Of a DNA stretch of 64,000 bases, positions 4,361 to 64,000 are shown piece by piece (position 1 is the stretch's first letter; each line of letters starts with the position of its first letter). Made by a program: the position numbers and the translations under genes. The notes below the pieces were generated by a model. It saw nothing but the letters and a program-made list of their open reading frames with translations, was not told where the DNA came from and did not search any database. This DNA comes from Liolophura sinensis. Taxonomy: Eukaryota; Mollusca; Polyplacophora; Chitonida; Chitonidae. Location: contig NC_088303.1 in NCBI RefSeq assembly GCF_032854445.1, positions 10,237,501-10,301,500 of the forward strand, in the 5' to 3' direction.

Positions 4361-4365
4361 TTTGC
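4159..4365 (-). CDS. CAT gene (minus) first coding exon
   Basis: The exon begins GCAAA then ATG at 4360 after acceptor cattcag. It encodes the cytosolic N-terminus and TM1 (GIGSMVGAGIYVLVGVAAKN) and ends in phase 1 before donor gtacga. The five non-coding bases show that the 5'-UTR is split by an intron whose upstream exon I could not locate. Confidence 0.85.
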
Positions 4366-22745: not shown

Positions 22746-25030
22746 AACACATATTAATTTACAAATTGGCAAGGACAAGTTGTGAGGTATACGCCAACCT
22801 CATCTGATATTACGTCAAACAACGTTTCGTAAGGACTACTTACACATCTATAAATTTCACGTCTATCTTTAATTCAGGTGAAAGATATGGCCAGTTCAAG
22901 GCCAAAAGAAGATTGTTGGATAGTCATAAAGTCGATGTCATTCGTTGCACCATTTGTTTGGTTGGTATAGAACTAGATTGCGTTAATCATTTAGCCATAA
23001 CAGGAGTTTTAAAATGGAAACCTTGTAATATGTATTCGTTAAGTAGCATGTATCAGGTGATGATCCTGTCATCCTCAAGGTCTTGCCATTCGTTAAGTAG
23101 CACGTGGTCAGGTAATGACTCTGTCATCCTCAAGGCCTCACTGGCTAGACGGCTCCCTGGATCATCAGTCTACACACCTGGGTACAAGTAACGGTGCTCA
23201 CCTGGGTACAAGTGAGGCTGCGATTGGGTAGAGATAACGGCTACATGTAGCATATCTGGTTACCTGCTCCATGTTTCAGTGTGGGAACTGATGACGGGTT
23301 CCACATACATGTATGCTTGGCTACTAGCTGTATGTGTAAGTGTAGGAAATGGTAACGGTTCCATATAGCATTAGCCACGTGCTACATATCTCCATGTGTG
23401 AATGGTATGCAAGGTTCCATCAGAAACTTCGATTTACCGAAGTCGAACGTTTGTAATCCTGCCGCAACCCAAGCTTATGCTCTTATTTCTGTGTTTGTCA
23501 GTTGACAATAAAACGAATTCCGTTTCATTTTCAATGTAATCGATGTGCCCTTTTCTTTCTAAATCACGAATGTCAAGATCTTTGATTTAATACTATGCTT
23601 AATGAAAGCAATTAAAATTGTTTGAAATTGAAACTATATGTATGGACAGTTTTTGTTCATGCAGTGAAGATAATGTCTGCATGCTGAAAAATGCATGCGC
23701 TAAGACTGATGACACACCTGCTGCAGCAAACCCTTTTGGAAGCCATTATGACATTTTGTTATCGCCGATGGAGCTTACTTATACTGAATGGGGGATGGGA
23801 AATATGCGGCTTACCTCATCAAATCGGGAAACAGGTGACGATTGTTGAGTAGTCAGAAAAAAGAGGCGCTATATAATATAATGACATTTGTAATGCCAAT
23901 GTAATATTACAAATATCCATCAGAAAAAATGCATTGTGGGTAGGTACACGTGTATGTGAAATTTATACCAGTTCGCTCCCAATATACCATATACGAGCAT
24001 GATGTGGGGAATACTGAAGCTAATGGGAAACGGGGCAAACGCAATCTAATGCTACATGCAGTTGTCGTATGCTTCTAGACAATACAATTATGATGTTTTA
24101 AACAAGGTGGATGGTAGTCGCCCAGACCAAAGCTCAGGTTATCAGTTAACCTGTAGGGATAGAAGAGCAAGTAGTTTCCTCCAATCCTTTATTTCCACTG
24201 TACACATCGACTGTTTGTTATACAGTGGTTAGTATTCACACAACTGTGCAGTCAGGAATAAGATAACGCGACTGACAAACCTTCTGGTATAAGGAATGTG
24301 TTATCGTTTGCGATGTCATTGGTCAGTGTCAGTGACACCTTCAGTGGTTCGGTCAACTAGATTTAGGAAGGCACAGACGCAGAAACTTATAAATGAATAA
24401 ATCAAATTATATTTCTATTTCAGAGTGCAGAAAACAAAAACATCGGTTTTAGATTCTAAGTGGATTACCTGACCTGCGTCGTAATAAAACAGGTGAGATA
24501 GATTCCTACATCCTGCAACTTCATTACCTCCAAGACTGTCACTCAAACTGTAAATTCTCAGGTAAGGACCAGATAAACGTCCTCTGTGCGAGACATTTCT
24601 AACCTATGGGCGGGAATATCCTTCCTAAGATAAACACCCTGCAAAGAAAAACGCATTACAACAGATAGACAAAGAGTTAAATCAAATGGCTCGACAGTTT
24701 CGACATCACACTTCTTCCACTGTTACGTGACATTATCTAGGGTAGCGTAGAACCAGTCTTTAGAGTCAAATACAAACGTGCTCCTTTTATATTATTATAA
24801 TATTAGATCATTGCAAAAAGTGACCTATTTAAGATAATCTCTGCTCTAGTGTGATTTTAAGATCATATCCCCAACGAAGAAAAAGTGTACGTTGCTGAGA
24901 CAGTGATTTGTTTTGGACTATTTCAGGGGTTAAACTATATACTGGACAACGTTATTCTTTGGCTTATCCGTTCTGTGTTTTGTGTTGTAGTCGTATCTTT
25001 AAATGAAGTTTTTTATAGTTTAATTTTCAG
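22746..25030. other. Upstream flank of the plus-strand CAT; short local duplications only
   Basis: CGTTAAGTAGCA..TGTCATCCTCAAGG is duplicated (23037-23082 and 23091-23136), and CACCTGGGTACAAGT occurs twice (23175 and 23199). The non-coding first exon of the CAT at 25036 should lie in or beyond this stretch but was not located. Confidence 0.45.
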
Positions 25031-25035
25031 ACATC

Positions 25036-26643
25036 ATGGAGACCGTGTCTAGGTTCTGGGGTGTGATAAACCGGAAGAAAACCTTGTCTTCTGACGTCAT
25101 GGACACCCCCTTAAGCCGATGTCTGAACACTTTTGACATGACACTTTTGGGCATCGGACATATGATTGGTGCGGGAATTTATGTGATCACGGGGACCGTC
25201 GTTAAGACGATGGCAGGTCCGGCGGCCATGTTGTCTTACGCCATCGCTGGGGTGGCTGCTATTTTAGCGTCTCTTTGCTACGCCGAATTCGGTGCCCGGA
25301 TTCCTAAAGCGGGCTCAGCTTATTCTTATACCTATGTGACAATTGGGGAGTTTTGGGCATTTGTGATTGGCTGGAACGTCGTACTGGAGCATTTGATTGG
25401 CGTTGCATCTGTAGCTCGTGCATGGAGTGGAAGTGTAAACGCCATATTTAATGACGCTATCAAAAACGGTACAATAGAACATATAGGGAGATTGAGTCAC
25501 GATTCCCCCTGGTTGTCAGAGTACCCAGACTTCGTGGCTGTCCTTGTGATAGTAATCATTTCAGCATTCATAATAACTGGAGCGAAGATCTCTACCGGCG
25601 TCAACAACGTCTTCACCATTCTCAACGCCATTGTCATGGTCTTCATCATCGTCGGTGGATTTTACTTGGCGGATTTGGATAACTGGAAGAATGATTACAG
25701 CGGCGGATTTTTCCCAATGGGCTTCCAGGGAGTGTTTGGTGGTGCAGCTGCTTGTTTCTATGCTTACATTGGCTTTGAAGGTATTGCCATAGCGGGTGAA
25801 GAGGCGCGAGACCCTGAAAGGTCCATCCCACGGGCCACACTTACTGCCATGGTCGCTGTGACCATTATATATGTGGTTATCACTAGCGCCCTGACACTGA
25901 TGGTACCATATTACGCCGTCATTCCGGCTGCGGCTTACCCAGCGGCATTTGCACTGCGAGGACTAGAGTGGATGAAGTACGTCGTTGCTTTTGGATCGTT
26001 GTTCGGTATCACCACATCTCTGGTGGGTGGTTTGTTTTCTCTGCCCCGGTCCGTCTATGCCATGGCCAGCGACGGGGTTTTCTTTAAATTCTTCGCCCGA
26101 GTGTACTCCAGGACACAGACCCCTGTCTATGCCATAGCCGTGTTCAGCTGTCTGGCAGCCATCATGGCCTTCTTGCTGGAAATCGAAGCCTTGGTTGAGT
26201 TCATGTCCATCGGCACCCTCATGGCTTACACTATTGTGGCTGCCAGTGTGATTATCATGCGATATCTGCCTGTCACAAAATGCCAGTTCAAACTTAAACC
26301 CGACGTATCGGCAGCAAACGCCGATGATACCGAATCAGTGTCGGAGAAAAGCGACATTCTTAAGAAATCCAAAAGCCACGACGACTTCGGCAGGTTAAAG
26401 CAAACTTTCAAGAAATTTCCTATTCTGAAGTCCGTGGAACCCGGAAACGCCGCCATATTGGCTGTTGTCCTTATGCTGGTGTTTATGACATCGTTCAGCA
26501 GCCTTCTCCTGTTTGGTATAGAACACATCCAGGCCGGGGCGTGGTGGAGCATCATCCTCTTACTGATCTTAGCTGTCTGTATCGTCGCCTGTTTTCTGAT
26601 CATAGTTGCACATGAGCAGAATGATGCTTTTCTGACTTTCCAG
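25036..26643 (+). CDS. CAT gene (plus) first coding exon
   Basis: A 536-codon exon carrying TM1 to TM12 and the large cytosolic loop after MRYLPVTK (about residues 415-465, rich in Asp, Ser and Lys). The open frame continues past the donor CAG|GTAAGT to a stop at 26691, but those extra residues (VSCTCHNH..) are intronic, since the CAT C-terminus resumes at 26985. Confidence 0.95.
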
Positions 26644-27532
26644 GTAAGTTGTACCTGCCATAACCATTCCTTTGTACATTTCTTTCTCTGAGCGCACCAC
26701 ACAAGACTCAGCATGTTTAGCTGGGCGTTCATGGCGTTCATGTTAGAATACGCGAATAACCCACTAATCAGCAAAAGTATGCACCGTGATACGTACATTC
26801 AAATTTGCTATCTTCCTGAATCATTTTTTAACCAGTTATTGGCCATTTCCCTCGGTCATTTCTCTATCTGTGCCCAACACTAAAAACCCATGAATCAAAC
26901 AAGACATTAACTGACTGATTACCTCGCCATTTCTAATTTAACACCCTTCTGAATGAAGTTTCATGCTTTTATATTCTTTCTAAGCTGCCATTTGTCCCGC
27001 TGGTGCCAGCAGTCAGCATGTTCTGTAACGTGACTCTCATGTTGAAGCTTTCCTATCTAACCTGGATACGGTTACTTATTTGGCTGGCCGTAGGTAAGTT
27101 ATGAAATGCTGGGATTTAATTTCAACATTATAAGATTCCGATGTCTTATTATTGACGGCCGTCATGTAAGTGAAATATTCGTTACAACTTCCAAAGCAAA
27201 TATATACATTTTAAGAAAGTGGTGAATATCAAAATATTGTACCTACAGCTCATTATTCTATGTACTGAATAGTTATTAATTTTTATATTCTCACAGGTTT
27301 GGTGATTTACTTTGGCTACGGTATCCGCCATAGCCTTGAGAACAAACCAATGGCGGCCTATAACCACCTAGTGTCCTATGTCGGGGACGCCGATATGGGT
27401 TCACGATCTCTCACGAACTTTGCCGAAGACGTTCATCTACAGCAACCAATCGTAAAGGAGAATTCCGAGTTTGGGCACCCGTCACAAGGAATGGAAGACC
27501 ATGAGATGGACACGGACTACCAGAGGCGGTAA
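25036..27532 (+). CDS. Cationic amino acid transporter, SLC7 CAT family, complete
   Basis: A predicted 650-residue plasma-membrane permease (14 transmembrane segments in this family) for cationic amino acids; substrate is inferred from family. Coding exons are 25036-26643, 26985-27093 and 27297-27532, with matching phases: CAG|gtaagt and ttctaag|CTG in phase 0, then GTAG|gtaag and cacag|GT in phase 1. Landmarks: GHMIGAGIYVITG in TM1, CYAEFGARIPKAGSAYSY, GWNVVLEHLIG, SVARAWSG, GGFFPMGFQGV, CFYAYIGFEGIAIAGEEARD, and the C-terminal pair YLTWIRLLIWLAVG / YFGYGIRHSLE, all typical of CATs. The acidic C-terminal tail is 77 codons in exon 3. The ATG lies five bases after a splice acceptor (ttttcag), the same arrangement as in the paralogue at 4360. 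Its first 536 codons are one exon, while the paralogue has two introns in that span. An AATAAA at 27745 could end the transcript. Confidence 0.95.
26985..27093 (+). CDS. CAT gene (plus) second coding exon
   Basis: A 109-nt exon, too short to stand out by length. It encodes LPFVPLVPAVSM .. LMLKLSYLTWIRLLIWLAV, the penultimate transmembrane hairpin of CATs, between acceptor ttctaag and donor gtaagt. Confidence 0.93.
27153..27182 (+). repeat. SINE relic in CAT intron
   Basis: GACGGCCGTCATGTAAGTGAAATATTCG matches the 3' core of the SINE family; the rest is lost. It lies in the last intron of the plus-strand CAT. Confidence 0.55.
27297..27532 (+). CDS. CAT gene (plus) last coding exon
   Basis: It starts with GT after cacag, completing a Gly codon, and reads LVIYFGYGIRHSLENKP followed by a polar cytosolic tail ending YQRR and TAA at 27530. 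Confidence 0.95.
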
Positions 27533-33609: not shown

Positions 33610-34645
33610 AGTATACCAGGACTGGAATATCATGCAGAAGACACCAAACATGACACTCCACCTAGTCACAGTATATCGACACGGGGTCGGACATTGGCAT
33701 ATCATGCTAAAGATACCAATCATTACATTCCACCTGGCCACAGTACGCTGACAATGGGCCGGACACTGGAATATCATGCTGAAGACACCAATCATAACAC
33801 TCAGTCTCGTCACAGTTTACTGGCACCGGGCCAGACACCCAAATACCATGGTGAAGGCACCAATCATATCAACCCACCTAGTCCCAGTATACTGGCACCA
33901 GGCCAGACACCCAAATACTATGGTGAAGGCACCAATCATGTCAACCCACCTTGTCACAGTATACTGGCACCAGGCCAGACACCCATATACCATGGTGAAG
34001 GCACCAATCATATCAACCCAACTAGTCACAGTATACTGGCACCAGGCCAGACACCCATATACCATGGTGAAGGCACCAATCATGTCAACCCACCTTGTCA
34101 CAGTATACTGGCACCAGGCCAGACACCCATATACCATGGTGAAGGCACCAATCATATCAACCCACCTAGTCACAGTATACTGGCACCTGGCCAGACACCC
34201 AAATACCATGGTGAGGGCACCAATCATATCAACCCACCTAGTCACAGTGCACTAACACCAGGCCAGGTACGGGAATATCATGCTGAAGACACCGAGCATA
34301 ACACCCAATTTAGTCACAGTATACTGATACCAGACCAGACCATACACTGGAATGCCATGCAGTCATAATAACCCACCTAGTCACTGTATATTGTCACCAG
34401 GCAACAAAAAATTCTGACACCAATCCTAGACATAGTATATTCACATCGGGTCGGACACTGGAATACAATGTTGTAGAGAGCAAGCATAACATCTCATCTA
34501 ATCACAGTATACCGACACCAGGCATGACACCGGGATGTAATAGTGATGACACCAATCATGACACCCCACCTAGTCACAGTATACTGACACCAGACCGGAC
34601 ACTGGAGTGTCATGCTGAAGGCATGACAATCCATTAGTCACCGTC
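33610..34645. repeat. 72-bp minisatellite, about 14 copies
   Basis: The unit carries CAGTATACTGGCACCAGGCC, AGACACCCATATACCATGG and TGAAGGCACCAATCAT. Central copies (33820-34260) are nearly identical and alternate between two versions (CATGTCAACCCACCTTGTCA / CATATCAACCCAACTAGTCA), suggesting a 144-bp higher-order unit. The edges are degenerate. The unit length is a multiple of three, giving a 262-codon open frame on plus (24-residue period HSILAPGQTP..YHGEGTNH) plus two other long frames. I do not call a gene: three frames are open at once, there is no conserved start context, and diverged copies break the frame. Confidence 0.92.
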
Positions 34646-36123: not shown

Positions 36124-36815
36124 CTGTTATACCGGCCCTCAGCACTTAACCGGTTCTCAGCACTTAGCCGGTTCTCAGTACTTCACCGGTTCTCAGTAGT
36201 TCACCGGTTCTCAGCACTTAACCGGTTCTCAGTACTTCACCGGTTCTCAGTACTTCACCGGTTCTCAGCACTTAACCGGTTCTCAGTACTTCACCGGTTC
36301 TCAGCACTTAACCGGTTCTCAGTACTTCACCGGTTCTCAGCACTTAACCGGTTCTCAGTACTTCACCGGTTCTCAGCACTTAACCGGTTCTCAGTAGTTC
36401 ACCGGTTCTCAGTACTTCACCGGTTCTCAGTAGTTCACCGGTTCTCAGCACTTAACCGGTTCTCAGTACTTCACCGGTTCTCAGTACTTCACCGGTTCTC
36501 AGCACTTAACCGGTTCTCAGTACTTCACCGGTTCTCAGTAGTTCACCGGTTCTCAGCACTTAACCGGTTCTCAGTACTTCACCGGTTCTCAGTACTTCAC
36601 CGGTTCTCAGCACTTCACCGGTCCTCAGCACAACCAGTTCTCAGTACTTCACCGGTCCTCAGCACTTAACCGGTTCTCAGTACTTCACCGGTCCTCAGCA
36701 CTTAACCGGTTCTCAGTACTTCACCGGTTCTCAGTACTTCACCGATTGTCAGCACTTTACCGGTTCTCATCACTTAACCGGTTCTCAGTACTTCACCGGT
36801 TCTCAGCACTTAATC
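36124..36815. repeat. 18-bp satellite, about 38 copies
   Basis: The unit is CGGTTCTCAGTACTTCAC with three main versions (CAGCACTTAAC, CAGTACTTCAC, CAGTAGTTCAC) in an irregular order. Most junctions create the palindrome ACCGGT. There is no open frame of note. Confidence 0.96.
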
Positions 36816-36839
36816 AACAGCATAAATTAGCATGATGAA

Positions 36840-37462
36840 CGCCAAAATAATTAACAAGTTACACAGACAAAGTTTAAACCAGACAAAATGACAAGTTACA
36901 CAGACAAAGTTTAAACCAGACGAAATGACAAGTTAGACAAAAAGAAAGTATACGCCACAAGAAATGACAAGTTAGACAAAAAGAAAGTATACGCCACAAG
37001 AAATGACAAGTTAGACAAAGACAAAGAAAGTATACGCCACAAGAAATGACAAGTTAGACAAAAAAGTATACGCCACAAGAAATGACAAGTTAGACAAAGA
37101 AAGTATGCGCCACAAGAAATGACAAGTTAGACAAAAAACGTATACGCCACAAGAAATGACAAGTTAGACAAAAAAGTATACGCCACAAGAAATGACAAGT
37201 TAGACAAAGAAAGTATACGCCACAAGAAATGACAAGTTAGACAAAAAAGTATACGCCACAAGAAATGACAAGTTAGACAAAGAAAGTATACGCAACAAGA
37301 AATGACAAGTTAGACAAAAAAGTATACGCCACAAGAAATGACAAGTTAGACAAAGAAAGTATGCGCCACAAGAAATGACAAGTTAGACAAAAAAAGTATA
37401 CGCCACAAGAAATGACAAGTTAGACAAAAAAGTATACGCCACAAGAAATGACAAGTTGCACA
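36840..37462. repeat. 36-bp satellite, about 17 copies
   Basis: The unit is AAATGACAAGTTAGACAAAA followed by AAGTATACGCCACAAG. Length variants have AAAGAAAG. The first copies carry TTACACAGACAAAGTTTAAA instead. It begins about 25 bp after the 18-bp satellite. Confidence 0.95.
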
Positions 37463-37704
37463 GGCAAAGTGCACCAGAAGTATTTAGACCGACTAAGAAG
37501 GCAGCAAGAAAGAAGAAGTTAGAGGGTTAGAAAGACGTAGATTTACGTCATTTCCACAAAGCACAAAATAAACAAGTACTTAAATCCTTCAGCATTTGAA
37601 CATATTGATGTTTGTCTTTCTCTATAAAACCTGCTGATCGACTACTAAAGCCATTGTGCCGGATCTTTTCTTCAGTAACCGTTCGATCTTTGGCATATCT
37701 TTTG

Positions 37705-46700: not shown

Positions 46701-49700
46701 GGTTACCACCAAAATGTAACCCACGCCACAAATATTAAAGGCTGAATAGCCTGGCTTTCAGTTCCACACACGTTACCCCATATACGTTCAAAACATATGA
46801 CAGAATATATATTATTATTTTCTGACTTAATGAAAAGGGAGATAACAAGCTGTCCTCAGTTTAGGCACGGGTTGAAGCTGTCATCTGAATAAAGGCTGAA
46901 TTATCAAAGTTTGAAGGCTTTTAAAGAAAACATTTGATAAAAGTGATAACGAAACTTCCCCAGAGTTGTCACTGTTTACACAAGAGATGACAGTTGTTCA
47001 AAAATAATTAACTCCGGCGATTTGCTTCAGGGTTGTTTCTTTATTCCTTTTCACCCGGTTTTAGGGGTTTATCGCCATGTTGGACATGTGAACAATTGCA
47101 ATGATGGTGCAGCTGACATACATATTTCTTATTAATGACAACTTATGAACTAGCATGATACACGATTTGGATACTGATTTCATTTATTTGCCTAAACATT
47201 CCTTGCCTCTTCCCGTGAACAGTGAAAACTGTTGCAACTATGGTTATATCTTACCTCTAAGTGATCTTGATTGTGTTTGTTTTTCCCATTAAGATCTTCC
47301 CTATGAGTGGTTGTTTTAAGCATTTAGATCTTCCCTGTGAGTGGTTGTTTTAAGCATTTAGATCTTCCCTGTGAGTGGTTGTTTTTAGCATTTAGATCTT
47401 CCCTGTGAGTGGTTGTTTTAAGCATTTAGATTTTCCCTGTGAGTGGTTGTTTTAAGCATTTAGATCTTCCCTGTGAGTGGTTGTTTTAAGCATTTAGATC
47501 TTTCCTATGAGTGGTTGTATTAAGCATTTAGATCTTCTCTGTGAGTGGTTGTTTTAAGCATTTAGATCTTCCATCTCATTTAGAGACCGACATCGATATC
47601 TTTCTCACGCTCTACCTGTGTATTTATTATACTATTACATATTATACATTTAATCAGTAACCAATATATCGTGCATTTAATCAACTGTTTTGAAAAATCA
47701 AGGGAATATTAAAAAAAATGAATATCACTCAGAAAATATTTAATTGCATTGCCTTTAAGATTTGTTATTGGAACGTCAACATGTTTCACCCTCTTTCTTT
47801 CTATTCCGGTCGTCTTTTACCAAGAATAACTGTTGAGTTTCAATTCAATGTGCCATGTACATGTACCAGTACAAATAATGTCCGGACATACTTTGGCTTG
47901 TTTGTATAGTAAATCTTTTGAGCAAGAGGCACCATTATTGGCGAATAATAGTTCCTGGCTAGGTCGACTTGTTGATGGAAGTGATTTAGACACAGTTCAA
48001 ACAATTTAAGAGCTGTCTCTTTTTATAAGCTAATTGGTTCACCTCCTTAGCTATATAGCTGTTTAGAACCAGGTGTATCGCGCGAAAAGTCACGGGCGTC
48101 TGCGACGAGCTACATGTATATAATCTTTCATTTTCAGGTGCCTCTGGGTCGTTGGAGTGCTCATGTCAGTGCTCATAGCCGTAAGTTAATTTCTTTTTTA
48201 TTAAAATTCATTCTTTTTTCAATTAATGTTAAACTGTTGTCATTTTTAGCAACATTATGAACTGAGAAGTTGAACTGAAACAATCAGTAACAAATTGTGA
48301 TACGAATTCAAGCAGTGTATTATCCAGTCTAAAGTCACACGTACAAGGCGGACACTCTAAACCAACGCCTGTCGCTTACATGGTGGGCACTCTATACATA
48401 CGTCTGTCATTTACAAGATAGACACTCTATACCGAGGTCTGCCATTTACAAGATGGGCACTCTAATCAGGCGCTAGTCGCTTACATGTTGGGAACTAACC
48501 CGATTGGGTATTCTAAATTTACGCTTGACGTGTACAAAGCGAACACTCTTAACACACGCATGACACGTTCAAGGCGGGCACCATATACCGCCTGTCGTGT
48601 AAAATTAAGGAGGACCTTCCAAACCTTTGTCCTTCAAAGCGTGGTATCCTAAATTGAGAATAACATGGTTTTAAATGGACTGCTTCGTGCAAACCTTGGT
48701 GTGTATATGAGCCGGTGTGCAAAAGTGTATAAAAATTAAACCAACATTAAGTATTACTCCCAATCCTATTGCAAAACTTCAAAACTAATAAAACCTATCT
48801 TTCCTATGCACTTTTTGTACCAGTCGTTTCAAGATATTCGCACTGCTGTTCATTTTGTGTGGAAGTTACACGGTGTGGGAAGAAAATTTGGATAGTAAAT
48901 GTTCAGACATAGGTTTTAACTCACCAAGGCCCAATTTTTACAAGCGCTTTCCATTTCCAGATTTCTGACTGTAAACCTAACGTTAACATAAAGAATCTGA
49001 CGAAGCAGGCCGAAGACAATGTGAACAACGAGGACAAACTGTACCAGGAAAGATTTGAAGCTAGTAAGTTTCTTTAAAAATTATATTTTATTTATTTCTT
49101 TATTTATTCATATATGTATTATTTATTTGATTGGTGTTTCACGTCATACTCAAGGACATTCACTTATACGGCGGCGGCAAGCATTATGGTGGGAGGAAAC
49201 CGGGGAGTACCAGGGCGAAACCACGACCATCCGCAGGTTGCTGCAAGACCTTGCCATGTACGGCCGGAGAGTAAGCCAGCATGAGCTAGACTTGAACTCA
49301 CGGTTACTGCATTGGTGTAAGAATTATAAAGCGTCGTATTATATTGGGTTTGAAATCACAAAGGTATGAAATAAAGTCCAAACCCAGGTACACCATAGTG
49401 TACATGTAATTTATCTGAGTTGTATTTGTCAGATAGGTCAAACAGTGTATGTAACTTTTCCCCACTCCCTTTAGACGTTGGTAGCCTTTTGGTTACAGTC
49501 AATCAGATGATTCAACAGTGGAGCTAAGTCAACCACGAATCGGTTCACTTGTTCTGAAGTACATGTATAATTGCAAAAGATCCGGTGATAATGGCGCTTG
49601 TAAGTTCCAAAACCTCTTGAGACAGTGTATCAGTGGTAAATTTTATTATTTTCCTATTAAAAAACCCTATTGTACTAATCTTCAGTAATTGGTAGATTTA

Positions 49701-52700
49701 AACCACAAGTCTAGCTGGTCGTGTTGTTTTCGGTCGTACTGGTGTATCTGATTATCTGTAGGGGTAAACGTAAAGTGTAACCGATTGTGCTGTAGTCGGT
49801 CATATTTGTGTATCTGACTATCAGTGGTGACAAATTTGAAGTGTAGCTGATCGTACTGTATTCGGTTGTACTATTGTATCTGATTATCAGTGGTGGTAAA
49901 TTTGAAATGTAGCTGGTCGTGCAGTATTCGGTTGAACTGGTGTATCTGACTATCAGTGGTGGTAAATATGAAGTGTAGCTGGTCGTGCTGTTTTCTGTCG
50001 AACTGGTGTATCTGGTTATCTGTAGGGGTAAATCTGAAGTGTAACCGGTCGTGCTGTATTCGGTTGTACTGGTGTATCTGACCATCAGTGGTGGTAAATT
50101 TGAAGTGTAGCCGGTCGTGCTGTTTTCGGTCGTACTGGTTTATCTGGTTATCTGTAGGGGTAAATCTAAAGTGTAACCGGTCGTGCTGTATTCGGTCGTA
50201 CTGGTGTATCTGGTTATCTGTAGGGGTAAATCTGAAGTGTAACCGGTCGTGCTGTATTCGGCCGTACTGGTGTATCTGACCATCAGTGATGACAAATTTA
50301 AAGTGTAGCTGGTCGTGCTGTATTCGGTCGTTCTGGTGTAACTGACCATCAGTGGTGACAAATTTGAAGTGTAGCTGGTCGTGGTGTATTCGGTCGTACT
50401 GGAATATCTGACCATCACTGGTGACAAATTTGAAGTGTAGCTGGTTGTGCTGTATTCGGTCGTACTGGTGTATCTGACCATCAGTGATGACAAATTTGAA
50501 GTGTAGCTGGTCGTGCTGTATTCGGTCATACTGGTGTATCTGATTATCTGTAGGGGTAAATCTGAAGTGTAACCGGTCGTACTGTATTCGGTCGAACTGG
50601 TGTATCTGGTTATCTGTAGGGGTAAATCTGAACTGTAACCGGTTGTGCTGTATTCTGTCGTACTGGTGTCTGATTATCAGTGGTTGTAAATCTGAAGTGT
50701 GTATTTGGTCATACTGGTCTATCTTTATTATCAGTGAATGTAAATTTTATCGTTAGGTAATCATTTCAGTAATCTTGATGAATTGGTTAATAGTGAAGCT
50801 TTTAATGCTCCTTTCATCTCCCTTTGCAGAAATCGACATATTGCCTGAGGATCTTACTACTGTAACAGCTGCTCTGTTTGAAGAAACGCCTGACAGAGCA
50901 GCGGAAATTGAGAAGCAAAGCAGATTGGTTAATTGGCTGTCTTACCTTCTCAGGTAGGACAACCATTTGTTTTTCTTTTACCTCCTGAATCTGCATTAAT
51001 ACATTGTATTGTTGAAATAAGACTATTATAAGAAATAAGACTTATTATCCTGAGTCTTACTCATCAAAGACTACATGTGAAGGCAACTGTTTTCCATTGG
51101 TCATGAGGTGATATGCATACTGACATGTTTAGCAATATTCTCTAAGTTTTTTTTTTGGCTTTTTATCCTTTTAACTTTGGGGTACAGAAAAAGTGGAGGG
51201 AGCGTATCTTTGTCTGAAGCTTTGGCACTGACTGGTATAGAGTGTCCATTCAAGCCTCCTGAATCCTGTCCATCAAGCAAATACAGATCTCTTGACGGTG
51301 TGTGCAATAACAAGGCTCATCCGCTACGCGGCGCTGCTTTCACCCCTTTCGCAAGAGAAATACCTCCAGCTTACGAGCAAGGTTTGTGACCCGCATTTGT
51401 ACTCTAGCGAATAACCATTAACGTTATGATAGAGTCCAAAAGCTTCCAATGAAGCTTGTGGTAGGAGACAAAATAGCTCTGTGGCCACGTCAATCTATAG
51501 GGCATTATTGCTCGTCAGAAAGATAAACAGTATCTTCTCTGTAAAAACTGGAGAGATCAAAATGGAGCATTTGTGAGAACAATCTAGCCTATTAACCTAA
51601 TGAACTGACGCTGAGCGGACGGGCCCAATTTTCCAAGAATGTCGACATAAGGGTGAACCTTAGCAGACATAAATTTGCCACCATGTCGATTTCCCTAATA
51701 GTTGGTGATGGGGACAAGGTGGAGATTAGTTTCTCATTGTCCGGTTACTGATTGTGTTAAACATTGTTGATTTAAATAATGCAGACACAAGTGGACTCAT
51801 TAGTTACATGTCCACGCCCTGGGGCTGAAATATACTTGTGTTTTACCACTAACGTCTCGTTTTAAAAATCAACTTTTGCTACTTTATTTGTGATAATCTT
51901 GCTTTCAGAAATACAGGCATAATTTATGAAGTAGTTGGCATGTATCAGTAGTCTGCTTCAGTCTATACACCAGTTTTCCATGTGCGAAAAAAAATAAAAT
52001 CAATGAAAAAATAGAAATAATGGAAAACAAATAAAGAATGCTTGTATATTTTGGGGTGCTAATCGTGGAAGTGTGTGCCACTTTTCAGACCCAAGCCCGG
52101 AAGGTTTGGATGATTTCCCAAGATGCACTGCCAAGAGCGGCCAATTGCTACCCAGTGCACGTGAGATCAGCCGAAAAGTTCATCAACAGGGACCATCTTC
52201 CTCAAACGCTGAGACAAAAAGTTTTTTCTTCGTAGCTTGGGGTCAGTTTGTGGCTCACCTGATCACAGATCGTGCCCCAGCCTCAGGTAATTGTCAACAA
52301 GGGCGATCTTTAACTGAACTGCTCAATGGTCGTCTATCAAAATTACAAATTATCACTTGATAGTTAACTTATAATTGAGTGGAAACGAAACATTTGACGC
52401 TTACGGTATGTGCATACTATTGTACACCGCTTTTCATCATGTACGGAAATGACTTAAATAAATAACAATCCTATAAACAATTTAGGAACAGCTATATCTT
52501 GGTGCATACATTTAACATTAACGTACATGTTAAATGGTTTCAAGACATTTAAGTATGGACTTATCATCCCCGTGTCTTTCTTCACAGCTGCCTTTCCATT
52601 AAATGTACCTAACTCCCTCTCTATAGCCAATATGTGTACGCGTCTCTTTATAGTAAAAATATGTACCTGTGTCGCCATTATTTTTGCAGGCTTTAAATCA

Positions 52701-55700
52701 GCGAGAGTAGACTGTTGCAACTTATCGAAGAAGGCGTGAGTACCCAGAACCAGAATTACAAACCAGTGATTCGTAGCTTGGTCACATGATATTAGATGGC
52801 TGTTGTAGTTATTGCTACTGATTATTCTGATTTTTTTTTCGTGTTTCATCACCACTGTGTTTGCAGTGTGAATGACCATGTCGGTCGAAGTTTACGCTGT
52901 CCGTGCTTGCAATGCCTTCTTTGTTTGCGAATCCAAAAACGTTAACGTCTTTTCATGATAAACGTGTTTTCATAAAAAAAAAACACATCAAAATGCTATA
53001 TGGCTGCACTCAGTAGAAATCCTTCCTTTTTCGTGTGAGAATCGGGGCGGTTTAGACTTTTAACCAGTCCAAACTTAAATGAAACGTAAAACTATAGGTC
53101 TTTAATTATACCGAATTTATTCAGTTGTCGATTAGCAAAGAAAGATGTGAATGAATCAGTGACTGGTTATGATTTTAAACCACACTGGACAGAGAAAGTT
53201 CCCTAATATAGTTTTGGATTACAAGAAATTACCAGAAATTCTGCACGCTGTTAACAAATGGTTTTGTTACACACTCACGTTCAAACGTTTCAATATTACG
53301 ATAAAAACATACGCCCATCCGAATGTCTCAGTGTTACACCAACAAATTGTCTTGTTACAGACCCCCGTTCTGGTGTTTCAATATTACACTAAAAATTTTC
53401 TTTTTACAAACTGTCATCCGAAAGTCTCAGTATTACACCAACAAACTATCTTGTTACAGACCCCCGTCCGAATGTTTCAACATAGACCTGGCTGACGACG
53501 ACCCTTATCGCTCTGTGGGAAGAAGCTGCCTAGGCTTCCTAAGGTCTCTGGAGGCAACAGATATCGACTGCAAAACTGGTATGACTTTTTTGTGATCACA
53601 CGAAATGTGTGTTCACAAAAAATATTTCTCGCCAGGTTAACGCAAACAGAATTGTTGTCGTCTTACGAACTGAGATTTTCCTGGGTCATAAGAGCGGGAA
53701 ACCAGCGCGAACAATTTCCTGGTACCTGACAAGCCTCCTCACGTATGAGCAGAATCGATCCAGCGAAGGCTGCGGCCTCGCTGGTCAGCGGCCGATTATT
53801 GAAGGTTAGAATAACGCTTTAAAACGATGATCCAGGGAGGCCCTTTGACCGCACAGACATCTCTCTAGGTCCTAGGGTTTGTCTTAGAACGCCTCGGTGT
53901 GCTTAAAACAGTTCGCTTGTCTGAGTTCTGAAACTAACTAAGCTTTACGGTACCATTCGACCATGTATCTAAAACATAATTCATGTTGATGTACAGTGCA
54001 AAATTAATTCAGTCTTGGCTTAGTTACGAGCCTTTCGATATTTCGAATAGGCCTATACTAATCTGAATCCCGTGGGACAACATTCGGACCAGTCAGAGGT
54101 GCCGTGGTAATAAAAGCCTATGAGTAACTTGCCACATTAACAACACACACAAAGAATTTGACTCATAGTTATGAGCTATTAGCGGTATATGTGCAATGCT
54201 GGAAACCGTTTCCACATGTGAATAGAAAATGCAGTGCTAAAATTAGGTGCAATGCAGTGGCTTATTAGTTCTACAAGGACACGTTTTATTTCATTTCAAT
54301 CATTTTCCCCGCGGTTTGAACTCACTCGATTGTTTGAATTATCTCCCTTGATCCCCCTGTGTTGCTTTTGCAGGGCGTCGTGAACAGTTGAACTCGGCAA
54401 CCTCCTTTATTGATGGAAGCGCTGTGTATGGTGTCACTGAGGAAAACGCTAAGTCTTTGCGAACATTTTCAGGAGGTAAAAATATAACATAGTAGTTCCA
54501 TTTTCGGAAGTATTTTAACCATGTATATGTTACACTTACCAATACTTGTAGACATTTCTGAGGGTAGGTCATGCAATTCATCATTGTGAAGCAAAATGAG
54601 ATGAGAACAAAATAAATAACGGTGTACATGGCTTATGAGTCTATCAAAGAGTTGTAGGATGTCAAAATCGCAACAAAATTGGTCTTGGAATGTAATGGTT
54701 AAATTAGCAAGTGCAAAATACAAGTAAGTAATGCAGTATTTTACACATCAGTTATTTGCCAAATTTATAAGTAGTCATTGCCATGTGAAGAACTTTATAA
54801 TTACAGGCAAGCTTGTGGTATCAGAGCCCAATCAGCTACCATACAATTGTAATAACCACCCACTGGCCGCGAAGCGGGGATTCAATTTGTTTAGTGCAGG
54901 TAAGTTTCCATGTCACTTAACACATCCTTTCTGGATTCCACTGTTCTCTTATTAGATGCCCATGACCACATCTACTTACTGGGCTTACTGTAGGTCTAAA
55001 ATTTATACATATATACCGTTCCTAGGTTGTCATGCGTTATTATACCCTTTTGCTAAGTTTCCACCATTGGTTCTCATGCCCAAGTGCACCTCTGTTATGT
55101 TCTCATATTTTATCATATGTCGTATTTGTTAGACTGACATGCCACACCGTACCCTTCAGCTATAACTATCAAGCTGTTTTTTCACAAATGTTTTTATCAC
55201 AGGCGATCCTCGAGTTAACGAAGTGTCTCATCTGATAGGCGTACACACGGTATGGGTCCGAGAGCACAACAGAATAGCCACAAAACTAGCTTCTTTGAAC
55301 CCCTCGTGGAAGGACGAGACTCTCTACCAGGAAACTAGACGGATTGTTTCTGCTCTAATCCAGCATATCTCCTATAAGGAGTGGCTTCCAATCGTGCTTG
55401 GCAATGACATCATGACTAAATACAATCTGAGCGTTCTTTCCAGTGGTTTCTATGACCAGTACGATGAGAACGTGAACCCGGCTACCACAAGCGTCACAGC
55501 GTCAGTTGCTATGCGTTTCGGTCACACACTGGTCTCCCCTCTTTTCCGTGTTCTCCCTAGGGACTACTCACAGGGAAGCACGCCAGCGTTGACACTAGGA
55601 AGCCTTTTTTTTCGTCCAAACTTATACGTGATGCACGAACAAGGACTCATGAGGGGCCTACTGGCGGACCCCAGCCAGAACATGGACCCCTTCGTCGAAT

Positions 55701-57984
55701 TTGATCTGACCAATCGCCTCTTCGAGACGGCTCGCGGTAACGGCATGGATTTGGCGGCGTTCAATATTCAGCGTGGCCGCGATAATGGGATACCTTCCTA
55801 TAACGAATGGAGGCGAAAGTTCAATCTGCCAGTTGGTACTTCTTTCTCGGCTGGCCTGCCCGGTATCCCGGACAATTTAACCAAAACGCTGGAAAGCGTG
55901 TATGGGTGAGTGTGAGGAAAAAAAAGAGGCCATTATACCTCAGACGTAGCCTATGTCAGTTTGTTCAGATTGAACACCAAATTTTCTCTTATCCCAGTCA
56001 TTCCGCCAAAGTTCATGTACTTCCAAATCTATCCTGGCGATCGAGGTCAGAAGTGAAATCGCCTCTCTTCTCCTGTGTCTTAGTTCCACCATTGAACAGA
56101 GACTTTTCATGTTCTCTAAAACCAAGACATGCCAATCAGTCATTCACCAATTCAGCACAACTCTGCTTAGCCAAAGTATAGTTAAGGTTTGACAGAAAAT
56201 CACACCTACATGTATACATGTCCCAATATAGCAACATTTATAGAAATGACTGATTAGTAAGCTTACTTCCTGTCTGATTAACAGCTGGTAAATTAACGAC
56301 TCTATAGCATTAAAAGTACCTTGTTTTGGATTTCAAAAAAGGAGAGATGATGGTCGTGGAATACATGTCATTTAGACCTGCAACAATCAGTATATCCTAC
56401 ACTGGATTTTTTTTATTACGGGCGTATTTTCATTTTGGACATTTTTAAAAATATTTTTATATTATTACTATATTTGGTACTTGTATATCAATGTATGGGA
56501 GAACGCAATATAACCCCGTCCAAGTGGTATTTGTTACATCCATGATATTGAGTGAAAATGTTCAACATACATCTTTACTCTAGTGAATTGCTAGCTAAAA
56601 TTTATGCTTCAATGATACTCTATCAAATGATTTGCTGTCGGTTTCTTACAATGAATTCTTACAACGAGCAACCAAAATCCAGGTGAGTTTTAACGATATT
56701 TTGAAGCACTTCAAGCAGCGACTGCATGAGCCGTTATTGTTATCGGTCAGTGATCGGTGAATCATTATTCTTATCGGTCAATCATCAGTGAAAATTATTT
56801 TCGTCTGTCGGTCAGAATACCTTTCTTATACCCACGCAAATCAGGCTCTGTCAGCAACTGGAAATTCATTTCTAATTCAGCGACCCTGAAGACATCGACC
56901 TTTACTCGGGGGCCCTGTGCGAGACCCGTGAAGGCGGTGCTGCTGTGGGGCCTTTGTTCGCCGAAATCTTAGGACAGCAGTTTAGTAATTTCCGAAAGGG
57001 CGACAGGTTTTGGTACGAGACGAATGAGTCACCACAGGCTTTTACAGCTGGTAAGCGTGCCCATAGATTTCCACCATTCCATTCTATTAATAACATTGTA
57101 GAGAATGGACTTTGGCTTAGATGTAAAATAAAGAATAAAAAAGAATAAAGAAAAAATAAAACAAAATAGAAAAGTAAAGGCCTTTGAATACCGAAATATA
57201 ATGCTAACATTCTGATGGACATACTTTACTTGTGCAGTAAAATCTAACGCTTGATTTTAGGAATTTCAGACAGATGAAAAAGACTTTACGGCAGGCTGCT
57301 TGAAAGTTGATGATAACTACACAAACATTGTTCATTTTTCAGCCCAGCTGACTCAGATTCGAGGGGTGACTCTAGCAGAAGTCCTCTGTAACAACCTTGA
57401 CCTTGACACCATACAGCCTGCTGCTTTCCTTTTGCCTGCTCCTCAAACGTAAGTCCAAACAATAAACTGGTTTATTTCAGGGAAATTTCGTTGGGCATAT
57501 TTTCCCTTCCTCCATGCTAGCATGCTCAAATACAGGTCATTTATTACTATATACGGTGATAGTGTGACAGATCTGTGTCAGGATGACGTAGAGGTAAATG
57601 TCGTTACAGTGTATCTAAGTCTGGTTAACACGGTCATGGTATTTAAGTCTGTAAATTTTACTAACAAATGTCATTACACTGTGCAGTGTATCTAAATTTG
57701 GGTAATACAGAGCCATACACGTCTTAGTATTACCGTTGTGTGACCATTAAAATTTAACACTGAGGTCACTTATCTTAGTGGGGAAAAATACTACAAACAA
57801 ACACAAACGTTTTAGCATCGCCACTTATATTCTATGTACCGCCAATTGGCTTAAATATATATTACTCTTGTGTGATCATATTCCTTTAAACGTTTCTCCT
57901 GTGCTTTGTATACTTCACAGGAACGCGCGAGTGGCTTGTTCGACGATTCAGCAGTTTGATTTAACCCCTTGGAGATCCCATTAG
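43726..57984 (+). CDS. Secreted animal haem peroxidase (cyclooxygenase/peroxidase superfamily), 14 coding exons
   Basis: Coding exons: 43726-43730, 48138-48180, 48961-49063, 50830-50953, 51188-51381, 52089-52286, 52690-52735, 53460-53578, 54374-54475, 54807-54899, 55203-55905, 56881-57050, 57343-57448, 57921-57984. All junctions are gt..ag and all phases agree; the sum, 2,070 nt, gives 689 residues. A signal peptide ([16 protein letters not shown]) is followed by a polar stretch, then the peroxidase domain from about [10 protein letters not shown] (residue 135 on). By comparison with myeloperoxidase: Gln91=Q209, distal His95=H213, catalytic Arg239=R346, Glu242=E349, proximal His336=H450 (MRFGHTLV), Asn421=N530 ([10 protein letters not shown]). 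The calcium loop T-F-D-S is intact (T287, F289, D291, S293). Unusually, Asp94 is Ala212 and Asp96 is Leu214 (WGQFVAHL). There are no Ig, LRR or transmembrane parts, so it is not a peroxidasin or dual oxidase; chorion-peroxidase-like or peroxinectin-like is nearest. Such enzymes oxidise phenols or halides with H2O2 outside the cell, in cross-linking or immunity; the role here is unknown. Confidence 0.93.
43770..43925 (-). repeat. SINE in peroxidase intron 1, 5'-truncated
   Basis: TTTATTTATTTGATTGGGGT TTTGCGCCGTACTCAAGAAT .. GGGTGGTCAGCGTTATGATG .. GTAAACCGGGCAGGAGACCG matches the antisense 3' part. Confidence 0.85.
43926..47290. other. Peroxidase intron 1, body
   Basis: Only short chance open frames on either strand; no exon or repeat recognised. 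Confidence 0.5.
47291..47577. repeat. 34-bp tandem repeat in peroxidase intron 1, about 8 copies
   Basis: The unit is AGATCTTCCCTGTGAGTGGT TGTTTTAAGCATTT with few changes between copies. Each unit contains TGTGAGTGG, which resembles a 5' splice donor. Confidence 0.95.
48340..48605. repeat. 35-bp degenerate tandem repeat in peroxidase intron 2, about 7 copies
   Basis: ACAAGGCGGACACTCTAAAC CAACGCCTGTCGCTT and variants (ACATGGTGGGCACTCTATAC..) recur at about 35 bp. One copy has an extra 16 bp. Confidence 0.8.
49085..49320 (-). repeat. SINE in peroxidase intron 3
   Basis: TTATTTGATTGGTGTTTCAC, TATACGGCGGCGGCAAGCAT TATGGTGGGAGGAAACCGG, CCATCCGCAGGTTGCTGCAA and GCATGAGCTAGACTTGAACT CACGG are present in antisense. 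It ends within the head. Confidence 0.9.
49720..50730. repeat. 66-bp minisatellite in peroxidase intron 3, about 15 copies
   Basis: The unit is GGTCGTGCTGTATTCGGTCG TACTGGTGTATCTG followed by one of two second halves: GTTATCTGTAGGGGTAAATC TGAAGTGTAACC, or ACCATCAGTGGTGGTAAATT TGAAGTGTAGCT. The unit is a multiple of three, so minus-strand frames of 124 and 129 codons (Ser/Thr/Tyr-rich, 22-residue period) arise; they are artefacts of intronic repeat. Confidence 0.95.
52089..52286 (+). CDS. Peroxidase exon with the distal histidine
   Basis: It encodes residues 157-222, including [12 protein letters not shown] and [19 protein letters not shown]. Most animal peroxidases read QWGQ..DHD here. This one has His but Ala before it and Leu after it. 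The bases (GTGGCTCACCTGATC) are unambiguous in the given sequence. Confidence 0.9.
53225..53484 (+). repeat. 99-bp repeat spanning the intron 7 / exon 8 boundary
   Basis: GTCTCAGTGTTACACCAACA.. TTGTTACAGACCCCCGTTCT begins at 53325, and GTCTCAGTATTACACCAACA.. TTGTTACAGACCCCCGTCCG begins at 53424. A third, more diverged copy (GGTTTTGTTACACACTCACG TTCAAACG..) precedes them. Confidence 0.88.
53460..53578 (+). CDS. Peroxidase exon 8, its start lying in a 99-bp tandem repeat
   Basis: It encodes [20 protein letters not shown] to DCKTG. The acceptor ttgttacag and the first exon bases are copied 99 bp upstream (see findings). Confidence 0.88.
55203..55905 (+). CDS. Peroxidase main catalytic exon
   Basis: A 703-nt exon encoding residues 343-576: [11 protein letters not shown] (catalytic Arg and haem-linking Glu), [26 protein letters not shown] (proximal His), and [18 protein letters not shown]. 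It ends GTVYG-like (ESVYG) at donor gtgagt. Confidence 0.95.
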
Positions 57985-61051: not shown

Positions 61052-61360
61052 TCAGAAACTGAGCAAACCAAGCTTGTGTATTTGCTTGTACTGGTCGGGA
61101 ATTTCCATGAGAGCGTGAAGAGCAAAGGATGCTTCTGGGTTGCGGGCATTTCGGGTGACTTTGTTAAAATCAACAAACTGGAAGTTATCAAATTTTCTTT
61201 CGGGCAAACCGTCGTCAAATTCTGCCATCGTGTCCCAAGGTCCGTCACCCACACCAATGACGATGATGGAAAGCGGCCATTTTGAGGCCTCAACAATGGC
61301 GGTTTGGGTGTCTCTCTCACGTGTCACCTGACCGTCAGCGACGATCACCAAGATGTGGTA
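61052..61360 (-). CDS. Copine/RGLG-type gene, last exon
   Basis: 309 nt, 102 codons plus TGA at 61054-61052. The open frame extends upstream of the acceptor to 61423, but those residues ([11 protein letters not shown]) are intronic poly-pyrimidine read-through. Confidence 0.9.
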
Positions 61361-64000
61361 CTGAAACAACAACAACAGCAGAAATTGGCGGTTAAACTTG
61401 CTCGCACAGGTTCCTGCACTCATTCCATGTCATTGCCTGCACCACAATCGGCAAACGAACAGAAGTCCTAAACAACGCTAGGCTAAGGAGATAAGTCTGA
61501 AATATTAATAATACGCTTTCCCTCTTTCTGTAGATTGAAAGGCAGTATCTTTGTAAAGAAATGTTGAATCATTTTTAAGCAGTTGTGGAGTAAAATGTTC
61601 TGCCAATTTAGCACGCAAGTGTGACACACACAGGTCACGTGTGTTTAATTGTATTGCAGTCTAGAGCCGACTGCACGACATTATGTATCCTGTACGTCAC
61701 CGAGCCGTGAACCATTATTCTAGCCATTCTTCCAGCACGTATAGGTGCCCAGGTTCACATAGTGAAGATGTAAACTAGTCCTCCACATATAAAGGTTAAA
61801 GATGACTTGCTTTGTTCAAGGTTCTTCAGTTTAGATACTCAGTTTGCTGAGCTTAGTCTGAACTTGTAGCCCATACATGCACCATGCTGTTTTACAAGGT
61901 CCCTTTGGGCTGCTGTTGGTGTCCACACAACTGCAGACATGTATTCCATTTACTGTAGTGGGTATGAATCTTACCCGTCACAAATACATACAACAAGACA
62001 GTGGGACGACCATCTCCAGAACATTTCCTCACTCAAACCCCAGAGCCCTCTAATATGCTGCCTTTAACCACATCTATTTTATTGTTCACATGCTCCACTA
62101 AGGTTAAAACCCAAACGGGCATGATGAAACCCCACGAGACAAATCAATCCTGATTTTATTTAAAAGAAATATCATAATCAATCAGGGCCTCCAGAGAACA
62201 TCGGTAGCTCGCCTGATTGAGCAGTTCGGCAAGCTGCATAATGTTTAAGTGGGATGGTATGTTCCACCACTGACCTCTAATGCAAACTAAAGTAGAATGA
62301 CATCGTTATACACAGATATTATTCTTTAATTCGATAGTGCTAAGATCTTGCCATTAGACCTACAAGACAGGCTGAAATAATTAAACTGTCACAAATATGA
62401 CAGTTTACCGTATAGGCAGAGATTGCATAGCAGTGAATCTTTGTGGTGCTAAGAGACGTCATTGTGGGGAGTTCGTGCACAAACTTGCCGCAGTGGTCTT
62501 GGATATGCAAATCGAGAACTGTACTTGGCAATCCGTCAACTATGGGTGGCAACTGCAACACTGCGAATGGTTGAACAAATCCTGAGCTGCTGTTACAAAA
62601 CTTCCTTGTGGGGACTTCGAGCACCAACTTGTTGGAGTGGTCTTTGATATGCAAATCGATACTCACAATTGGCTATCGGTGTACACTGGGCGGGCACTAC
62701 TACCCTATTATCGGCTGAACAAATACTCTGCTATCGAGAGTCATTGACTATGTGGATGGTTTAAACACTCTGTCGCAGTATAAGGGGCACACACGCCGTC
62801 CAATTTAATAGGCTCATAATACTAATATAGATGTGGAGAGTTTTCTACAGATAATGTGTATACCAGCTAAAATTGAGCCAAAAAATCCAAAAACTTTGAC
62901 ACGCCATGAATCTGGTAAAGCAGAGGAATCTGGTTATCAATACCCTTCTTATTCTCCTACATGTACATGTATGTTGTCCTGTGCATAAAGAAGGAACACT
63001 ACATGAAAGTTTTCTTGATTGCAAGAAATAGGTAAATTTGGCAATGTCCCAAAATCTGTAAAAAAAAAAGTCAGAAAAACCCTGTGTACAAAAACTGTAG
63101 CCCTGCATGGAGGCTTCTAAAGAGAATATGCTTACTACAGCAAACTAAGTGAAGTTTATACAGCTGGTAAATGTTTACACTGAAAGCCTACCAATCAAAA
63201 TGACTAAAAAAACATTCTTTTCAAAAAAGATCCACTATCCATCAGTGGGCACTTTGTAGATGTACACATCATCTATGATAGAGTATTTTAACCATGACAG
63301 AGTAAAAATATTAAAAAAAACCATAACTTTCTATTGAAGTATGTTAGACCTAAAAGAAAAAAAAATGTTAGAGCTAAAAAAAGCTTAACGTTCGATCTGA
63401 GTGTGGACTTTATACAGGAGGTAAAAAAAACTTAACATTAAATCTAAGTATGTATATTTACACACCATAGATTAGACCAGCGAGTTTAAGAGAACAACTT
63501 AGCCTTCCATACGAGTATGCATGTTTTCACATCATATTTTTAGGGAGTTAAACAAATCTTAGCCTTTAAATCCATGTAGGGGAGCCCAATACACAGGAGT
63601 TTATTCTTTAATTCTAGTGTGTACACAGACACACCCTACCTGTGATTAGGATGCTAAAAAAAGCTTAACATTCAATCCACGTATAACAGCCCACAATACA
63701 GGAGGTAAAGAGAACAAGTGCAACCAGACACCAACACTGATATGGACACCCCTCTCCACTTCTCACAATATCTCAACTTACTTCCTACAGGTGAGCTAAA
63801 TAGAATATCACTATTTTGTACTCAAGATTATTCCCATAAAAAAGAAACAATATCTACATAGACAAATTCTGGTACGTTGTTTTGACCACTCCAATCTTGA
63901 CAATGAGTTATGTTAATTCCAAATATCAAATAGACTTCATCAAGCTCTGACCACAATCTTACCGATTTTGTCATTTTGACGATCTCTATAGCCCGGTTAA
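61052..64000 (-). CDS. Copine/RGLG-type vWA-domain protein, 3' end (5' part outside window)
   Basis: Two exons are visible: 64000-63963 (partial) and 61360-61052. The first reads [12 protein letters not shown] and ends at donor gtaaga in phase 0. The last starts after tttcag with [18 protein letters not shown] and runs [33 protein letters not shown], then [18 protein letters not shown] and stops after SF. This is the C-terminal half of the copine (vWA-like) domain, and it is strikingly like plant RGLG proteins (ASK.PLSI..VGVGDGPW, FDNFQFV, ALMEIP.QYK). Plant RGLGs carry a RING finger after it; here the protein stops about six residues after the domain, so no C-terminal RING is present. Copine domains bind partner proteins at membranes, often with calcium; the N-terminal half, which would hold the metal-binding DxSxS motif, is outside the window. 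Function cannot be stated more closely. Confidence 0.85.
61361..62436. other. Copine-type intron, first part
   Basis: Intronic on the minus strand; no exon or repeat recognised. Confidence 0.5.
62437..62735. repeat. 144-bp tandem duplication in the copine-type intron
   Basis: GTGGTCTTGGATATGCAAAT CG (about 62493) recurs as GTGGTCTTTGATATGCAAAT CG (about 62637). Flanking TGGGGAGTTCGTGCACAAAC TTG matches TGGGGACTTCGAGCACCAAC TTG. A third, decayed part follows. A minus-strand frame with repeated LHIxDHxxK is a by-product of the repeat. Confidence 0.8.
63330..63715. repeat. Degenerate short repeat in the copine-type intron
   Basis: GCTAAAAAAAGCTTAACGTT CGATCT-like segments recur irregularly (63374, 63420, 63548, 63652), with GTATATTTACACACC / ACACAGACACACC between, at spacings of about 46 to 130 bp. 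Confidence 0.55.
63963..64000 (-). CDS. Copine/RGLG-type gene, partial penultimate exon
   Basis: 38 nt at the window edge. In antisense it ends ATGACAAAATCG before gtaagattgt. The phase fits the last exon, and [18 protein letters not shown] matches the usual copine sequence before the central strand. Confidence 0.7.

What the first reader, a model, noticed from the sequence alone, without database searches (positions are those of the whole stretch)
52089..52286. Haem peroxidase lacking the haem-linking aspartate and one calcium ligand
The exon reads WGQFVAHL where myeloperoxidase-type enzymes read WGQLLDHD. The distal His (H213) and Gln (Q209) stay, as do the Arg (R346), Glu (E349), proximal His (H450), Asn (N530) and the T-F-D-S calcium loop (T287, F289, D291, S293). 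Only the Asp that forms the 1-methyl ester to haem and the Asp that completes the calcium site are changed, to Ala212 and Leu214. This predicts one ester bond through Glu349, altered redox properties, and a weak or absent calcium site. It may be a specialised secreted enzyme or one drifting to a non-catalytic role such as a matrix protein. I see no other sign of decay.
Basis: partly seen in the sequence, partly recalled or inferred. Interest (0 to 1): 0.75.

Follow-up and report, generated by a model that had tools for sequence, protein, structure and literature searches.

The report
Chiton peroxidase with altered haem site
This is an apparently intact gene for a haem peroxidase in a chiton; its missing haem-linking aspartate is also missing in most of its sister genes, while the loss of a calcium-binding aspartate was seen only in this copy, so it looks like a modest variant of a known enzyme rather than a decaying gene.

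Summary
Window 52089-52286 is an exon of an open gene (13 exons found; first coding exon not identified) encoding an animal haem peroxidase (PF03098, 570 bits). It reads WGQFVAHL where myeloperoxidase reads WGQLLDHD; the other named residues stay.

The interpretation must be cut down. The assembly matches the chiton Liolophura japonica. In 23 readable sister loci the haem-linking Asp is Ala in 9, Ser in 11, Thr in 1 and Asp in 2: its loss is the family norm. The calcium Asp is kept in 23 of 23; Leu212 is the private change. It is this gene's only deviation in 42 columns invariant across 19 other rows; its tree branch is of ordinary length.

Dictyostelium PoxA, with Ile and Asn at these two sites, is an active enzyme with one ester bond and bound calcium (PMC5787809 passages). 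Best explanation: an active single-ester peroxidase (Glu347) with a weakened calcium site. Against it: lactoperoxidase is said to lose function without calcium (PMC12154331 passage). More interesting is the family: 8 of 21 aligned genes lack both ester-forming residues.

The parts
48138..48180 (+). first exon found (not the first coding exon); reads [14 protein letters not shown], hydrophobic, likely part of a signal peptide
   Evidence: for frame and splice borders; signal peptide is my reading, no predictor was run; 11 candidate start exons upstream, none convincing
48961..49063 (+). exon, N-terminal region ahead of the peroxidase domain
50830..50953 (+). exon, N-terminal region
51188..51381 (+). 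exon; the peroxidase domain begins here (residue 122 of the model)
52089..52286 (+). exon of the finding, with the distal-His motif
   Evidence: phmmer alignment
52238..52261 (+). codons of WGQFVAHL: Ala210 at 52253-52255 (haem-linking Asp site), His211 at 52256-52258, Leu212 at 52259-52261 (calcium Asp site)
52690..52735 (+). exon
53460..53578 (+). exon
54374..54475 (+). exon with the calcium loop TSFIDGS (Thr285, Phe287, Asp289, Ser291)
54807..54899 (+). exon
55203..55905 (+). long exon with Arg344, Glu347, Val348 (site of the myeloperoxidase sulfonium Met), proximal His448 and Asn528
56881..57050 (+). exon
57343..57448 (+). exon
57921..57984 (+). last exon, with the TAG stop

Best explanation
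The gene encodes a catalytically competent haem peroxidase, probably secreted, of a chiton gene family. H2O2 would be split by His211, Gln207 and Arg344 over a haem held by His448-Asn528 (inferred from retained residues). The haem would be linked by one ester, Glu347 to the 1-methyl, instead of two, because Asp94 is Ala in this gene as it is Ala or Ser in most sister genes. This should give a more negative Fe(III)/Fe(II) potential than in two-ester enzymes and favour iodide, thiocyanate or phenol substrates over chloride (by analogy with Dictyostelium PoxA). Leu212 removes the carboxylate of Asp96 from the calcium site; calcium would be held more weakly, by main-chain oxygens and the intact loop T-F-D-S, or not at all. 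Shown here: the sequence, residues, family pattern, and lack of decay. Inferred: secretion, ester, potential, substrates, calcium affinity.
For: Intact frame and splice sites. Full-length domain match and best solved relative myeloperoxidase, E 6.2e-91. Catalytic residues kept. In 42 columns invariant over 19 other rows the window gene deviates once, at Leu212; other genes in the same test deviate 0 to 4 times. End branch 0.58 against a median of 0.56. pN 0.317 against pS 0.815 with the nearest relative L007 over 355 codons, with pS saturated. Precedent: Dictyostelium PoxA has Ile-100 and Asn-102 at the two sites, one ester through Glu-236, bound calcium, fast iodide and thiocyanate oxidation (PMC5787809 passages and part of abstract).
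Against: Lactoperoxidase is said to lose its function entirely if it cannot bind calcium, the ion being linked to Asp227 (PMC12154331 passage); Leu, unlike the Asn of PoxA, offers no side-chain oxygen. The site is Asp in 23 of 23 sister loci, so it matters to them. No expression, protein or activity data were available; no structure model was made. The Glu ester is autocatalytic and cannot be read from sequence.
Confidence: 0.6

Rival explanations
1. Haem-binding but non-covalent peroxidase: without the Asp and with a loosened calcium site, the Glu347 ester does not form well, and the enzyme works with free haem b.
For: 8 of 21 aligned genes have lost both ester-forming residues and still keep the distal and proximal His, so the family seems to tolerate non-covalent haem.
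Against: Glu347 is kept in this gene; Dictyostelium PoxA forms the Glu ester without the Asp (PMC5787809 passages).
Confidence: 0.2
2. Non-catalytic protein, for example a matrix or adhesion protein that has lost stable calcium and activity.
For: Calcium loss is said to abolish lactoperoxidase function (PMC12154331 passage). Peroxidases are found in mollusc shell matrix (PMC5379566 passages) and peroxidasin-like proteins in chiton tooth cusps (PMC6351634 passages). Peroxidasin group Pxd2 lacks Asp94 (PMC3533774 passages).
Against: All catalytic residues kept, only one private deviation in 42 invariant columns, ordinary branch length.
Confidence: 0.13
3. Artefact: sequencing or assembly error, or an alternative exon that supplies DHD.
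For: Long-read coverage of the published assembly is only 14X (PMC11068029 passages). No transcript data were available.
Against: CTG differs from GAC and GAT at all three bases; the exon is in frame with good borders; no other exon of this type in the window by pattern; the Ala matches the family.
Confidence: 0.03

Closest known systems
Dictyostelium discoideum peroxidase A (PoxA, PDB 6erc)
   Same: Both distal aspartates replaced (Ile-100, Asn-102), Glu kept, catalytic triads kept, one ester, active (PMC5787809 passages); found by sequence at E 2.1e-65
   Different: Ala and Leu instead of Ile and Asn; the Asn is a calcium ligand there, the Leu side chain cannot be
Myeloperoxidase and lactoperoxidase (chordate peroxidases)
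   Same: Closest solved sequences; distal and proximal residues and calcium loop
   Different: They have both aspartates and two ester bonds; myeloperoxidase also has a Met link where this gene has Val348
Sister genes in the same genome (L003-L006, L008, L010, L011, L013, L017, L018, L023 and others)
   Same: Ala or Ser at the haem-linking Asp site; 13-row clade with the window gene, support 100/100
   Different: All that could be read keep the calcium Asp; five of them (L003-L006, L011) have Gly at the Ser291 site
Peroxidasin group Pxd2 and short peroxidasins
   Same: Lack Asp94 (PMC3533774 passages)
   Different: Pxd2 also lacks the distal Gln, which is kept here; this gene has no other Pfam domain

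Membership tests
Animal haem peroxidase domain (PF03098) | Profile match above the curated cut-off over the domain | tested here: met
   570 bits against a cut-off of 25; profile 1-530 of 530
Peroxidase-cyclooxygenase superfamily, typical motif outside families 4 and 7 (PMC4420034 passages) | X-G-Q-X-X-D-H-D-X | tested here: not met
   WGQFVAHL: both Asp replaced; G, Q and H met
Peroxidase-cyclooxygenase superfamily, typical motif outside families 4 and 7 (PMC4420034 passages) | X-R-X-X-E-X with distal Arg and ester Glu | tested here: met
   Arg344, Glu347
Families 1-3, calcium motif (PMC4420034 and PMC3533774 passages) | Loop Thr-x-Phe-x-Asp-x-Ser | tested here: met
   TSFIDGS, Thr285 to Ser291
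Families 1-3, calcium motif (PMC4420034 and PMC3533774 passages) | Asp96 as calcium ligand | tested here: not met
   Leu212
Single-ester peroxidase of the PoxA type | Asp94 site not Asp, Glu kept | tested here: met
   Ala210, Glu347
Single-ester peroxidase of the PoxA type | One covalent haem ester in the protein | not testable with these tools
   needs mass spectrometry
Peroxidasin | Extracellular matrix domains beside the peroxidase domain | tested here: not met
   Only PF03098 found in the 687-residue model; first coding exon missing from the model
Cyclooxygenase | Closest relation to prostaglandin synthases | tested here: not met
   Best prostaglandin synthase match E 5.1e-12 against 6.2e-91 for myeloperoxidase
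Dual oxidase | Closest relation to dual oxidases, with an NADPH oxidase part | tested here: not met
   Dual oxidase 1 only E 7.8e-32; no further Pfam domain

The most novel reading that the evidence does not exclude
The chiton gene family is a natural graded series of the myeloperoxidase-type haem site inside one genome, with two, one or no ester-forming residues (2, 10 and 8 of the 20 aligned genes that could be read at both sites), and the window gene adds a calcium site without its carboxylate: a peroxidase made to work with weak or no bound calcium, for example where free calcium is drawn down by mineralisation.
Probability: 0.12. Interest if true: 0.6.

Novelty: new variant of a known kind. 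Interest (0 to 1): 0.35.

Why it matters
The two ester bonds and the calcium site are used as defining marks of myeloperoxidase-type enzymes. A mollusc genome in which most such genes have dropped one or both ester residues, and one has dropped the calcium Asp too, shows that these marks are evolvable. It offers ready-made proteins for testing what each bond does to redox potential and substrate choice. For the window gene alone the message is modest: it is an ordinary member of its family with one unusual change.

Tried and rejected
Non-synonymous to synonymous rates: computed for eight pairs with the window gene. pS was 0.79 to 0.85 in all eight, saturated, so no ratio is given; pN was 0.32 to 0.42. 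It shows constraint in general, nothing about the recent window branch.

Matching the window gene with its nearest relative at the motif: L007 (53% identity over 355 columns, support 88/91) reads N over bases 1-4501 of 9001, where the exon should lie. So it is not known whether Leu is shared with L007. I did not pursue the N stretch.

First coding exon: 11 candidate start exons upstream, none better than chance in my judgement.

Other exons of the motif type in the genome: the exon-5 protein search gave 18 matches at E up to 10; two outside the fetched stretches proved to read YGQFLAHD (L031, L032), and one (L033, E 0.255) showed no peroxidase motif. I assign L031 to the L022 gene (they overlap) and L032 to the L021 gene by position, 7.7 kb upstream.

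Rows dropped before the 42-column count: L007 (motif unread), and L019, L021, L022, L024-L028, not aligned because broken, cut, or of other subfamilies. L024 is closest to dual oxidase 1 and L026 to prostaglandin synthase; L025 and L028 I class as dual-oxidase-like by resemblance only. L018 and L023 were kept although L018 holds one in-frame stop and L023 reads Glu at the proximal-His column, probably a modelling fault.

Literature: no paper on loss of ester residues in mollusc peroxidases appeared in searches (listings only; one search gave 2 papers). The library is partial. One search (myeloperoxidase D94V) gave none. NCBIfam gave no family.

Full report
WHAT IS THERE. The exon at 52089-52286 belongs to a plus-strand gene. 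Thirteen exons with AG/GT borders from 48138 to 57984 join to an open frame of 687 residues ending in TAG. The first coding exon was not identified; 11 candidates exist. The model matches the animal haem peroxidase domain over its whole profile, 570 bits. The nearest solved sequences are myeloperoxidases, best E 6.2e-91 (70 distinct sequences matched, 60 shown). The motif WGQFVAHL lies at 52238-52261 and aligns without a gap to WGQLLDHD.

WHAT IS KEPT. Gln207, His211, Arg344, Glu347, His448, Asn528 and the loop Thr285-Phe287-Asp289-Ser291 are all present. Val348 stands where myeloperoxidase has the Met of its third haem link (site name recalled). According to PMC3533774 (passages) Asp94 is esterified at C5 of pyrrole ring C and Asp96 binds calcium; PMC5787809 (passages) gives the Glu ester to the 1-methyl.

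WHOSE GENOME. The assembly has 632 contigs and 609,464,459 bases, with C1 of 96,433,062 and C9, which holds the window, of 37,343,639. The published Liolophura japonica assembly has 632 scaffolds, longest 96,433,062, N50 37,343,639 and total 609,495,693 (PMC11068029 passages); the totals differ by 31,234 bases. A molluscan haemocyanin domain is present in eight neighbouring copies. So the host is a chiton.

THE FAMILY. PF03098 gave 82 exon matches in this genome, a lower bound (170 candidates, 81 scored). I grouped them by eye into 28 places beside the window and fetched a stretch of each. Twenty-four look like myeloperoxidase-type genes; three look like dual oxidases (one tested) and one like a cyclooxygenase. 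The distal motif could be read in 23 of the 24. At the haem-linking site: Asp in 2 (L001, L002), Ala in 9, Ser in 11, Thr in 1. At the calcium site: Asp in 23 of 23. The unread one, L007, is N there. Some of the 23 are broken or poorly modelled (L018, L019, L021, L027). So the Ala is ordinary in this genome and the Leu is not.

AT THE GLU SITE, in the 21-row alignment: Glu in 13 including the window gene and L007, Gln in 6, Val in 2. Of the 20 rows readable at both sites, 2 have both ester residues, 10 have only the Glu, 8 have neither.

DECAY OR NOT. Among the 20 rows readable at the motif, the window gene has one private deviation in 42 columns invariant over the 19 others, and it is Leu212; the other rows have 0 to 4. 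Its end branch is 0.58 against a median of 0.56, and 0.58 for L007. Synonymous change is saturated. The codon CTG is three changes from GAC or GAT. I see no decay and no simple sequencing error.

THE TREE. IQ-TREE, 21 rows, 558 columns. Thirteen rows with Ala or Ser at the site (L007 unread) group together, 100/100, and contain the window gene; L007 is its nearest, 88/91. The six Ser/Gln rows group at 100/99 on the other side with L001 and L002. The root is a midpoint only. If Asp is the old state, as the family motif of PMC4420034 suggests (passages), it was lost at least twice; a different root or a regain would change that.

HOW IT PROBABLY WORKS. Dictyostelium PoxA has Ile-100 and Asn-102 where this gene has Ala and Leu. 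It forms one ester through Glu-236, binds calcium, has a potential of -0.276 V against -0.128 to -0.183 V for the two-ester enzymes listed, oxidises iodide and thiocyanate fast, bromide poorly and chloride not (PMC5787809, passages and part of the abstract). The simplest reading is that the window protein works the same way. The doubt is calcium: PoxA keeps a ligand (Asn) at that place and Leu is none, and lactoperoxidase is said to lose all function without calcium (PMC12154331 passage). Secretion is inferred from a hydrophobic N-terminal stretch, without a predictor.

BIOLOGY. Oyster has 26 peroxidase genes by one BLAST survey, nine high in mantle, and peroxidases occur in shell matrix (PMC5379566 passages). 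Three peroxidasin-like proteins are among 22 cusp-specific proteins of a chiton's magnetite teeth (PMC6351634 passages). Either setting would suit a secreted cross-linking peroxidase; nothing here says where the window gene is expressed.

VERDICT. The sequence observation is right. Half of its meaning, the missing haem-linking Asp, is ordinary in this family and has an active precedent. The other half, Leu at the calcium site, is real and private among what could be read. The family-wide loss of ester residues is the better story.

Noticed in passing
L009, L012, L014, L015, L016, L020 (also L019); L008, L013: Sister peroxidase genes with neither ester-forming residue: Ser with Gln, or Ala/Ser with Val. 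Predicted non-covalent haem.
   Followed up: partly
L010, L018, L023: Lys in place of the catalytic distal Arg; L018 also holds an in-frame stop in its model.
   Followed up: no
L007, bases 1-4501: The nearest relative of the window gene reads N where its distal-His exon should be, so sharing of Leu cannot be judged.
   Followed up: no
window 49707-50700: Minisatellite of about 15 copies of a 66-base unit inside the second found intron of the peroxidase gene.
   Followed up: no
window 33621-34340, 36138-36811, 36839-37470, 47273-47572: Further tandem arrays with units of 72, 18, 37 and 34 bases.
   Followed up: no
window 25024-26691 (+) and 209-1603 (-): Two amino acid permease reading frames (PF00324, PF13520).
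   Followed up: partly
window 61052-61429 (-): Copine exon (PF07002).
   Followed up: no
G000 contigs C99 and C632: Mitochondrial COX1 appears seven times at roughly 15.5 kb steps in C99 and once in C632, probably a concatenated mitochondrial genome in the assembly.
   Followed up: no
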